Origin: Anaerolineales bacterium | GTDB taxonomy: Bacteria > Chloroflexota > Anaerolineae > Anaerolineales > Villigracilaceae | Assembly: GCA_030680795.1 (NCBI GenBank) | Contig: JAUXUL010000025.1 | Span: forward strand, 41,115 to 105,114 | Length of the DNA stretch: 64,000 bases | Direction of reading: 5' to 3' | In this document: positions 61,594-64,000 of the stretch, one piece after another | Position numbering within the stretch: the first letter of the stretch is position 1 | Layout: each line of letters begins with the position of its first letter | The notes under the pieces: generated by a model | What the model saw: only the letters and a program-made list of their open reading frames with translations | What the model was told of the DNA's origin: nothing | Databases searched by the model: none | Translations under genes and position numbers: made by a program

Positions 61594-61618
61594 TGCCCTC
61601 TCCCTTTGGGAGAAGGGG
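61594..61618. repeat. CCCTCTCCC...GGGAGA palindrome at the integrase tail
   Basis: Same family as 17246 and 34494. In the restored integrase frame it encodes [10 protein letters not shown] just before the stop codon. Confidence 0.7.
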
Positions 61619-61691
61619 AATCGAGGGGGGATTTGACGGCGAGGCCGCCGCGTTGTAAGACATGCGTATAAATCATAGTGGTTTTTACGTC

Positions 61692-61714
61692 CCTTCGACG
61701 AGCTCAGGGCATGC
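61692..61714. repeat. 23-nt repeat breaking the integrase gene (3' copy)
   Basis: CCTTCGACGAGCTCAGGG and CATGC lie between the codons for LLGHK and DVKTT of the integrase. Its 23 bases shift the frame just before the catalytic tyrosine. Confidence 0.88.
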
Positions 61715-62134
61715 CTTGTGGCCGAGGAGTTCCTGGATGGTACGGATATCATAACCGTTTTGGAGGAGTTGGGTGGCGAAGGAATGGCGGAAGGTATGAG
61801 GCGAGACGTGTTTATCTATTTTGGCGAGCAGGGATGCTTGACGAACTGCTTTTTGCAAGACGCTTGGGTCCATGTGGTAACGCCTGGTTTTTTTGGTTTC
61901 GGGGTCAACAGAACGCGCATAGGCAGGGAAGAGATATTGCCAGATCCATTCTTTAGGGGCGTTGGGATATTTTCGGGCGAGGGCATAAGGCAGGTAGACC
62001 TCGCCATAGCCTGCCTGGAGGTCTTGGTGATGAATGTCACCAACGGTTTTCAAGTGAGTTTGCAGGTCTGGGATCAGCGCATCAGGTAACATGGTGGCGC
62101 GGTCTTTTTCGCCTTTGCCATCGCGGACGATGAT

Positions 62135-62157
62135 ACTTCGACAAGCTCAGCACAAGT
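62135..62157. repeat. 23-nt repeat breaking the integrase gene (central copy)
   Basis: ACTTCGACAAGCTCAGCAC and AAGT lie between codons for DFGDHQ and [12 protein letters not shown]. The 23 bases shift the frame. Confidence 0.88.
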
Positions 62158-62592
62158 CTGGTGGTCGCCGAAGTCAATATCCTTGACGCGCAGGCGCATA
62201 CATTCCATCAGGCGCAGGCCGCTGCCGTAGAGAAGCTTTGTCATTAACTGGGAAACGCCTGTCATTTTATTGATGACGGACATGGCTTCCGGGTGGGTGA
62301 GGACAACTGGCAGGGTTTCAGATCTTCGGGCGCGGATAATATCGGAGGGAAGGGTGATGTCTATTTTCAGGACGAAGCGATAAAGGAAGATGACGGCACT
62401 CAAGGCCTGATTTTGGGTGGAGGCGGCGAGTTGTTTTTGGTTGGCAAGATGGGCGATAAATGCTTGTATTTCCTCTGCGCCCATGTCTTTGGGATGGCGT
62501 TTATTATGGAACAGGATGTAGCGCCTGATCCAGTCTATGTATGTTTTTTCGGTGCGGGAGGAGTAATGTTTGATGCGAATGGCATCGCTGAC

Positions 62593-62616
62593 ACGTTCGA
62601 CAAGCTCAGTGCAAGC
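62593..62616. repeat. 24-nt in-frame repeat copy in the integrase N-terminus
   Basis: ACGTTCGACAAGCTCAGTGC and AAGC encode ACTELVER between LLEQ and VSDAIR, keeping the frame. Confidence 0.8.
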
Positions 62617-62708
62617 TTGTTCGAGAAGTTTTTTCGCTTTTCCTCTTTCGGGGGTCTTCGAGGGGGAAGATGTAGGTTGTGGTTGCATGTATTCACCTGT
62701 TTAAGTTT

Positions 62709-62718
62709 GTGCTATACT
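62709..62718 (+). promoter_or_regulatory. Possible extended -10 promoter between intI and the first cassette
   Basis: TGCTATACT fits an extended -10 element reading towards the cassette. It lies 54 bases upstream of the ferredoxin-like gene. No convincing -35 is seen. By position this gap should hold the integron attI site, but I could not assign the core. Confidence 0.4.
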
Positions 62719-62771
62719 GTGCTCCATGTTTCAGGGATTCGACCCCATACAACCATTGAAAGGAGAGCAAA

Positions 62772-63656
62772 ATGTGCGAGTTCTGTACTGAACACGGCGA
62801 GGGAAAGAAATGGTATCTCCAGATGAAGAACTACACCGACGAATTACTCCATGAGGAACTTTCTTCCGCCCAGAAGGACATCGAAGGAGTCACAACGCGT
62901 TTCGAGTGGTACAACCGCTTCTGGGAGAGCTTTGTGATGCCAGCCGTCGGTGGCGTAACCAAGACGGAAGGGGAACCACGAGAAGCTCCGCCACCGACTG
63001 AGCTTTCTAAGGCCCAACCCAGCGAAGATGAGATCGTGGCACAGCGGAAAATCACGCATTTCGGTCAGGTACTGCCCATCGAGGACGTTGAGCAAGTGAT
63101 AGATATGGTGAGCTCTATCACGAGAATGCCTTGTGGATGCCGGTTCATCACGACGGGGAAAGCAGACAAACGATACTGCTTTGGCTTGGGGATCGACAGA
63201 TTTGGTATACTTGGTAATTTTCCTGATGCCGCTTCGTCCCTGGAGGTGCTTGACAAGAAGGAGGCCAAGAGAATCTTCCGTAAATACGACGAGGAAGGGC
63301 TGATGCACAGCATTTGGACAAGCCTAACTCCCCACGTAGCAGGCTTATGCAACTGTGATCGCGATTGCGGGGTTTACAAGAGCTACATCGAGAAGCGAGG
63401 GACCCCGACTTTTTTCCGAGCGGAGTACATCTGCCAAATAAACTGGGACCTCTGCACGGGGTGCAAGGAATGTATGAGCCAATGCCAGTTCGGAGCTCAG
63501 TTCTACTCGTCTGCGCTTGCCAAGGTCTATATCGATTCGACTAGGTGCTTCGGGTGCGGCGTATGTAGAGCGGCATGCCCATACGATGCCATTGCGCTCA
63601 TTCCAAGGCAGGAAAACCCTGAGACGGCGAACGTTTGGCTGAGAAATACAGTGTAA
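62772..63656 (+). CDS. Cassette-borne ferredoxin-type [4Fe-4S] protein
   Basis: The 294-residue protein has an N-terminal CEFC, a central region with MPCGCRF and LCNCDRDCGVY, and a C-terminal pair of ferredoxin motifs: CTGCKECMSQC and CFGCGVCRAACPYDAI. GGAG lies before the ATG. The codon choice looks unlike that of the neighbouring core genes. It lies between the integrase and an attC site, which marks it as an integron gene cassette. It probably serves electron transfer; the partner is unknown. Confidence 0.85.
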   Translation: MCEFCTEHGEGKKWYLQMKNYTDELLHEELSSAQKDIEGVTTRFEWYNRFWESFVMPAVGGVTKTEGEPREAPPPTELSKAQPSEDEIVAQRKITHFGQVLPIEDVEQVIDMVSSITRMPCGCRFITTGKADKRYCFGLGIDRFGILGNFPDAASSLEVLDKKEAKRIFRKYDEEGLMHSIWTSLTPHVAGLCNCDRDCGVYKSYIEKRGTPTFFRAEYICQINWDLCTGCKECMSQCQFGAQFYSSALAKVYIDSTRCFGCGVCRAACPYDAIALIPRQENPETANVWLRNTV

Positions 63657-63742
63657 TAACGTTCTGTAAGTCGAAGCAGACTCACTGCACAAGCCGATGC
63701 TTAGCTGGCAACTATGCTTCTACATACAAGAAGAACAGCGCA

Positions 63743-63874
63743 GCCCAACACGCGCTTGGAGCCGACCGCCCTTCGGGCGTGTTATATCGAAGGTCGCTTT
63801 CGTTGTTGCGGTTGATGCTGGATTTAGGTAAACTCAGTTCAGCCAAGCGGCGGCTCAAGCGCCACCCGTTGAAA
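63743..63874 (+). other. attC recombination site of the integron
   Basis: R'' core GCCCAAC (63743-63749) fits RYYYAAC; the 3' core GTTGAAA (63868-63874) fits GTTRRRY except for the last base. Inside, GCGCTTGGAGCCG (63752-63764) pairs with CGGCTCAAGCGC (63851-63862), leaving a single extrahelical G, as in true attC sites. The 86-base variable loop holds no gene. The site lies 87 bases after the ferredoxin gene stop. Confidence 0.78.
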
Positions 63875-63937
63875 CTGTCGAAAAAGTGGGGGAATAACTA
63901 GCACAAAGCTACAGGGTTCTATAAGATAGAGGAACCT

Positions 63938-64000
63938 ATGGCAAAATTCAAACCATGCAATGAAGATCAATTGGTCATGCTCCCGATTTCCCTGCAGGAC
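63938..64000 (+). CDS. Start of a transposase gene (IS1182/IS5-like), cut by the window edge
   Basis: The last 21 codons read MAKFKPCNEDQLVMLPISL and QD, matching the N terminus of IS1182-family-type transposases. AGAGGA precedes the ATG. The insertion sequence would start between the attC site and this codon; its terminal repeat is not resolved here. It lies where a second cassette would be expected. Confidence 0.55.
   Translation, partial: MAKFKPCNEDQLVMLPISLQD

What the first reader, a model, noticed from the sequence alone, without database searches (positions are those of the whole stretch)
62700..63874. Chloroflexota-type integron with a ferredoxin cassette and attC site
The order integrase (minus), short gap with a possible promoter, plus-strand gene, and attC with a one-base bulge is the standard integron layout. 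The cassette cargo is a [4Fe-4S] protein rather than a resistance gene. A transposase gene starts just past the attC. With the integrase broken, the array may be frozen.
Basis: partly seen in the sequence, partly recalled or inferred. Interest (0 to 1): 0.7.

Follow-up and report, generated by a model that had tools for sequence, protein, structure and literature searches.

The report
Dead integron with IS1182 in attC
The end of this contig holds the wreck of a bacterial gene-capturing platform (an integron), with a ferredoxin-like gene of foreign origin and a real cassette recombination site (attC) that a transposable element has entered at the very bases where cassettes are normally joined; related elements sit in the same sites in nine genera, which appears to be undescribed.

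Summary
Observation confirmed, interpretation partly. 61617-62688(-) is an integron integrase (TIGR02249, 187+181 bits) broken by two frameshifting 23-bp insertions of a dispersed repeat. 62772-63656(+) encodes a 294-aa 4Fe-4S protein. 63743-63870 is a genuine attC (R'' box, 12-bp L stem with one bulge, R' GTT; no equal in 640 kb of shuffled sequence), though divergent from the host's other attCs. The layout is not standard: attI is missing. A close intact relative has attI where the window runs straight into the ferredoxin gene, so capture at attI is not shown. The gene is foreign: 77% identical to relatives outside the family, about 45% to family homologues. The 'transposase past the attC' is the left end of an IS1182-family element inserted in the attC R' box (GTT on both sides, IR GARACTGTCGAAAAA). 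Its ends mark 18 contig ends of this genome; related copies in nine genera sit at the same point of attC or its 3' half. attC-targeting IS1111 elements and group II introns are known; I found no report for IS1182. Four integron platforms in this genome are dead, each with the IS in its first attC. Whether the IS reads attC structure or only sequence is open.

The parts
61617..62688 (-). Integron integrase pseudogene (intI)
   Evidence: TIGR02249 187.2 and 181.2 bits in two frames; N-terminal part 94% identical to the intact L057 integrase
62134..62156 (-). 23-bp dispersed-repeat insertion in intI, frameshift
   Evidence: gap in the alignment to L057; repeat core has 75 copies in the genome, control 0
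61692..61714 (-). Second 23-bp repeat insertion in intI, frameshift just before the catalytic-tyrosine region
   Evidence: alignment to L057; the same insert at the same place in the C27 integrase
62596..62609 (+). Third copy of the repeat core, in the N-terminal part of intI, no frameshift
62710..62718 (+). Extended -10-like TGCTATACT, conserved with the intact relative; possible cassette or intI promoter (inferred)
   Evidence: 42 of 44 bases shared with L057 around it
62735..62771 (.). Junction where relatives have attI and the window runs into the ferredoxin leader; attI absent
   Evidence: comparison of intI upstream regions; no GTTRRRY box in 62689-62771
62772..63656 (+). 294-aa double 4Fe-4S protein of foreign origin
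   Evidence: Fer4 families; 77% identity outside the family, about 45% within it
63743..63870 (+). attC site: R'' 63743-63749, L'' 63752-63764, L' 63851-63862, R' GTT 63868-63870
63871..64000 (+). Left end of an IS1182-family element (IR GAAACTGTCGAAAAA), cut by the contig end
   Evidence: same left end at 8 contig ends; family from the full-length relative
63938..64000 (+). First 21 codons of the IS1182 transposase
   Evidence: 86% identical to the start of the 514-aa transposase of L123

Best explanation
This is the relic of a chromosomal integron. The integrase gene was knocked out by small 23-bp repeat insertions, and attI was lost by deletion or rearrangement, which joined the old promoter region to a foreign 4Fe-4S gene that still ends in an attC site. 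An IS1182-family element then transposed into the R' box of that attC, duplicating the three bases GTT, the core at which the integron integrase itself cuts, so that a GTT stands on both sides. This group of IS1182 elements appears to use attC R' sites as its preferred address. Shown by sequence: integrase breakage, missing attI, attC architecture, IS position, GTT on both sides, repeated occurrence in attC. Inferred: loss of integrase activity, the order of events, active target choice by the transposase, and expression of the ferredoxin gene from the old promoter.
For: Integrase and breakage. attI absent versus L057 and other relatives. Foreign gene. attC. IS1182 family. Insertion point, 15-bp IRs and GTT repeat in nine complete-copy reads from seven genera. 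Own genome: 8 left ends follow five host-type attCs (51-139 bits), the window attC, one half attC and one gene. Relatives: of 15 distinct left ends in nine genera, 7 directly abut a model-scored attC and one more hit ends 39 bp short; most others keep the 3' half of an attC. The one insertion in a gene (C17/C25) restores a continuous frame when the flanks are joined with one GTT.
Against: The window attC scores only 10.4 bits against the host model. The ferredoxin gene's relatives elsewhere have no attC behind them, so its cassette status rests on this attC alone. One IS copy lies outside attC. The target motif GCNANCCGTTRG occurs 16 times unoccupied in the genome, 9 of them outside attC, so a sequence preference could explain much of the pattern. 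The right-hand partner of the window's IS is unknown.
Confidence: 0.8

Rival explanations
1. A standard integron: the ferredoxin gene is an ordinary first cassette captured at attI by the integrase, and the array is frozen only because the integrase later broke.
For: Order integrase, promoter, gene, attC; gene of foreign origin.
Against: No attI and no GTTRRRY box between integrase and gene, while relatives have one there.
Confidence: 0.12
2. The hairpin behind the ferredoxin gene is not an attC but a chance or terminator-like inverted repeat, and the gene is an ordinary horizontally acquired gene beside an integrase relic.
For: Low model score (10.4 bits); relatives of the gene lack an attC.
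Against: Box order, spacing and 12-bp stem have no equal in 640 kb of shuffled sequence; the IS entered at the same R' position as in strongly scored attCs.
Confidence: 0.06
3. The repeated element is itself a gene cassette moved by the integron integrase, not by its transposase, which would explain why it always lies at G^TT.
For: Junctions at GTT on both sides and constant orientation.
Against: It has transposon inverted repeats and no attC of its own at its 3' end; one copy lies in a methyltransferase gene with a clean empty site; the integrases of this genome are broken.
Confidence: 0.04
4. The IS simply prefers a linear sequence motif around CCGTTRG, and attC sites are hit because they carry it; the folded structure plays no part.
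For: Extended motif is largely confined to attC anyway (7 of 16 unoccupied sites); the non-attC insertion carries the motif.
Against: The short core CCGTTRGSC has 69 sites, mostly outside attC, yet nearly all insertions are in attC; the IS1182 relative IS1272 is reported to target stem-loops (PMC5678879).
Confidence: 0.5

Closest known systems
Chromosomal integrons (IntI TIGR02249, attI, attC arrays)
   Same: IntI-type recombinase, divergent cargo, attC architecture, attC arrays elsewhere in the genome; Chloroflexi integron integrases were already listed in 2008 (PMC2426708).
   Different: Here the integrase is broken, attI is missing and an IS cuts the attC.
IS1111-attC group (ISKpn4, ISPst6; cited in PMC11187229)
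   Same: An IS that targets one end of integron attC sites.
   Different: IS1111 has a DEDD transposase, subterminal IRs and a guiding seekRNA; the present element has a DDE-type IS1182 transposase, terminal IRs and a GTT repeat at both sides.
IS1182 family, IS1272 (PMC5678879)
   Same: Same transposase family; IS1272 is reported to target inverted repeats or stem-loops.
   Different: IS1272 replaces the hairpin and leaves no duplication; here the attC hairpin stays and GTT is duplicated at its 3' foot.
Group II introns associated with attC (PMC7923331)
   Same: Another class of mobile element associated with integrons and attC.
   Different: Retroelement with a ribozyme; unrelated to a DDE-type IS.

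Membership tests
Integron | Integron integrase gene | tested here: met
   TIGR02249 187 + 181 bits, but the gene is frameshifted twice
Integron | attI site between integrase and first cassette | tested here: not met
   present in relatives, absent in the window
Integron | At least one attC site behind the cargo gene | tested here: met
   divergent from host attCs
Integron | Further attC sites in the same array | tested here: inconclusive
   26 attC model hits in the genome but the contig ends in the IS at window 64000
Integron | Recombination activity | not testable with these tools
   needs an assay; the broken gene makes activity unlikely
IS1182 family | IS1182-type transposase | tested here: met
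   full-length relative 261.8 bits on NF033551 (cut-off 270, just below), DUF772 + DDE_Tnp_1_6; the window itself holds only 21 codons
IS1182 family | Terminal inverted repeats | tested here: met
   15-bp IRs GARACTGTCGAAAAA at both ends of complete copies
IS1111-attC group | DEDD transposase and subterminal inverted repeats | tested here: not met
   IS1182-type transposase, terminal IRs
IS1272-type hairpin replacement | Target hairpin replaced, no target duplication | tested here: not met
   GTT on both sides, attC upstream of the IS retained
IS1272-type hairpin replacement | Recognition of a stem-loop target | tested here: inconclusive
   targets are hairpins, but a linear motif could explain most of them

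The most novel reading that the evidence does not exclude
A dedicated IS1182 subgroup recognises the folded attC hairpin and inserts at the integrase's own GTT core, leaving a GTT junction on each side so that the attC upstream keeps its core and the IS becomes part of the next cassette. The habit may reach beyond the own class: a decayed 33%-identical copy in Pseudoalteromonas has GTT on both sides, the IR start GAGGCTGT and an attC-like hairpin with an R'' box beside it.
Probability: 0.35. Interest if true: 0.75.

Novelty: new variant of a known kind. Interest (0 to 1): 0.52.

Why it matters
attC sites are known landing pads for IS1111-family elements and for some group II introns. A DDE-type IS with the same address would be another, independent solution, and would let one test directly whether a transposase can recognise a folded recombination site. 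It would also help explain how chromosomal integrons are split, silenced and lost: in this genome four integron platforms are dead and their arrays are cut up by this IS, which also breaks the assembly at those points. The 23-bp repeat as a cause of integrase death is a second open question.

Tried and rejected
A plain R''/R' complementarity scan did not separate attCs from shuffled sequence, so family motifs and a covariance model were used. The default RNAalifold structure missed the attC stem (model R1) and was replaced by a stated structure (R2). The ferredoxin gene was not found on plasmids. The transposase was not found in viral contigs; the phage collection gave one weak 28% hit, not followed. 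Catenovulum relative L203: AAC (GTT on the other strand) at both ends and a GC-rich hairpin beside it, but no R'' box, so not counted as attC. Pseudoalteromonas L202: no comparable ends found. Pseudoalteromonas L201: DNA fold of its attC-like flank only z = -1.4, so kept as a lead. Literature searches for IS1182 with attC or integron gave only incidental co-mentions, judged by counts and abstracts; the library is open-access only. The IS as a cassette moved by IntI was considered and rejected (terminal IRs, no attC of its own, one copy in an ordinary gene).

Full report
Where it lies. The window is G000:C16 41115-105114, and contig C16 ends exactly at window position 64000. Everything after 63871 is the start of a repeated element at which the assembly stops.

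Integrase. Two minus-strand frames, 62077-62688 and 61685-62092, hit the integron integrase model TIGR02249 with 187.2 and 181.2 bits. A homologue from another genome of the same family (L057; 94% amino-acid identity in the N-terminal part; intact) shows that the gene carries two 23-bp insertions, 62134-62156 and 61692-61714, each shifting the frame, the second just before the catalytic-tyrosine region. Outside the inserts the frame is open, so the breakage looks recent. The inserts belong to a dispersed repeat with core TTCGACRRGCTCAG: 75 copies in the genome against 0 for the reversed control. Six copies lie in two integrase genes; the Poisson chance under random placement is 1e-11, but dead genes tolerate insertions, so that figure overstates the case.

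No attI. In the relatives the region between integrase and first cassette ends in a box like TAGTTRGSC. L057 and the window share 42 of 44 bases around the promoter; then L057 continues into attI, while the window runs into the leader of the ferredoxin gene. No GTTRRRY box exists there. A defining part of an integron is therefore missing, and capture at attI is not demonstrated.

Cargo. 62772-63656 encodes 294 aa with a C-terminal double 4Fe-4S domain. The best matches are 77% to an unnamed bacterial MAG, 76% to an Atribacteria MAG and 72-73% to WOR-3 MAGs. 34 of 152 genomes of the own family match, the window's own genome included, and the family homologues are only about 45% identical. The tree separates the two groups with 100/99 support. 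The gene is foreign. Its relatives elsewhere show no attC behind them.

attC. The boxes are listed under parts. The 12-bp stem with one bulge is the best in the window and had no equal in ten shuffled 64-kb sequences. Seventeen attCs from the family gave a structure with strong covariation. The model finds 26 sites in the own genome and puts its best hit in the 3 kb at 63743-63874, but with 10.4 bits: right architecture, foreign sequence.

The IS. Eight contig ends in the genome carry the same left end, preceded by CCGTT, and ten carry the right end, followed by GTTRGSC-like boxes. The complete element in G008 is 1,706 bp with a 514-aa transposase of the IS1182 family. In complete copies the base after GTT is always G on the left and G or A on the right, and both ends read GARACTGTCGAAAAA inward, so the duplicated bases are most simply GTT; CGTT cannot be excluded. 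The copy in a methyltransferase gene gives one continuous 294-codon frame when the flanks are joined.

Target. In the own genome, left ends follow five host-type attCs (51-139 bits), the window attC, one half attC (C18) and one gene (C17). In relatives, of 15 distinct left ends in nine genera, 7 directly abut a model-scored attC, an eighth hit ends 39 bp short, and most others keep the 3' half of an attC. Orientation is constant in the copies checked within the class. The short core CCGTTRGSC occurs 69 times in the genome, mostly outside attC, but the longer motif GCNANCCGTTRG occurs only 16 times, 7 in attC. Whether the transposase reads structure or sequence is therefore open.

Wider genome. 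Besides the window there are integrases on C27 (three repeat inserts; its first cassette region carries a ResIII-type helicase and a DNA methylase), on C24 (stop codon, truncated attI) and a remnant on C44. On each of these contigs the IS sits in the first attC after the integrase. Two small contigs, C14 and C26, are array pieces with an IS end at each end.

Knowledge status. attC-targeting ISs of the IS1111 family and stem-loop-targeting IS1272 are known (PMC11187229, PMC5678879), and Chloroflexi integron integrases were listed in 2008 (PMC2426708). No report of IS1182-family elements in attC was found in the open-access library. The host's phylum was not tested.

Noticed in passing
window 61694, 62137, 62596, 41832; 75 copies across G000: A dispersed 23-bp repeat (core TTCGACRRGCTCAG) with hairpin-like ends, inserted in integrase genes and inside several attCs; the insert sits at the same integrase position in C16 and C27, and at another shared position in C27 and C44.
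   Followed up: partly
G000 contigs C16, C24, C27, C44: Four integron platforms in one genome, all with broken or truncated integrases, each with the IS in the first attC.
   Followed up: partly
L013:5024-10484 (G000:C27): First cassette region of the C27 integron carries a ResIII-type helicase, a 302-aa unknown protein and an N6/N4 DNA methylase, probably a type III-like restriction-modification set.
   Followed up: no
L014:2569-3163 (G000:C26): MazE/PemK-type antitoxin-toxin pair in an array piece flanked by IS ends.
   Followed up: no
L010 end and L095 start (G000:C17 and C25): The one IS copy outside attC interrupts a SAM-methyltransferase-like gene at a CCGTTGGCC lying in a small hairpin (CGCGGC, 15 nt, GCCGCG).
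   Followed up: partly
L201:1379-3219 (Pseudoalteromonas piscicida NZ_CP074588.1): Decayed distant IS1182 relative with GTT on both sides beside an attC-like hairpin; suggests the habit may reach beyond the own class.
   Followed up: partly
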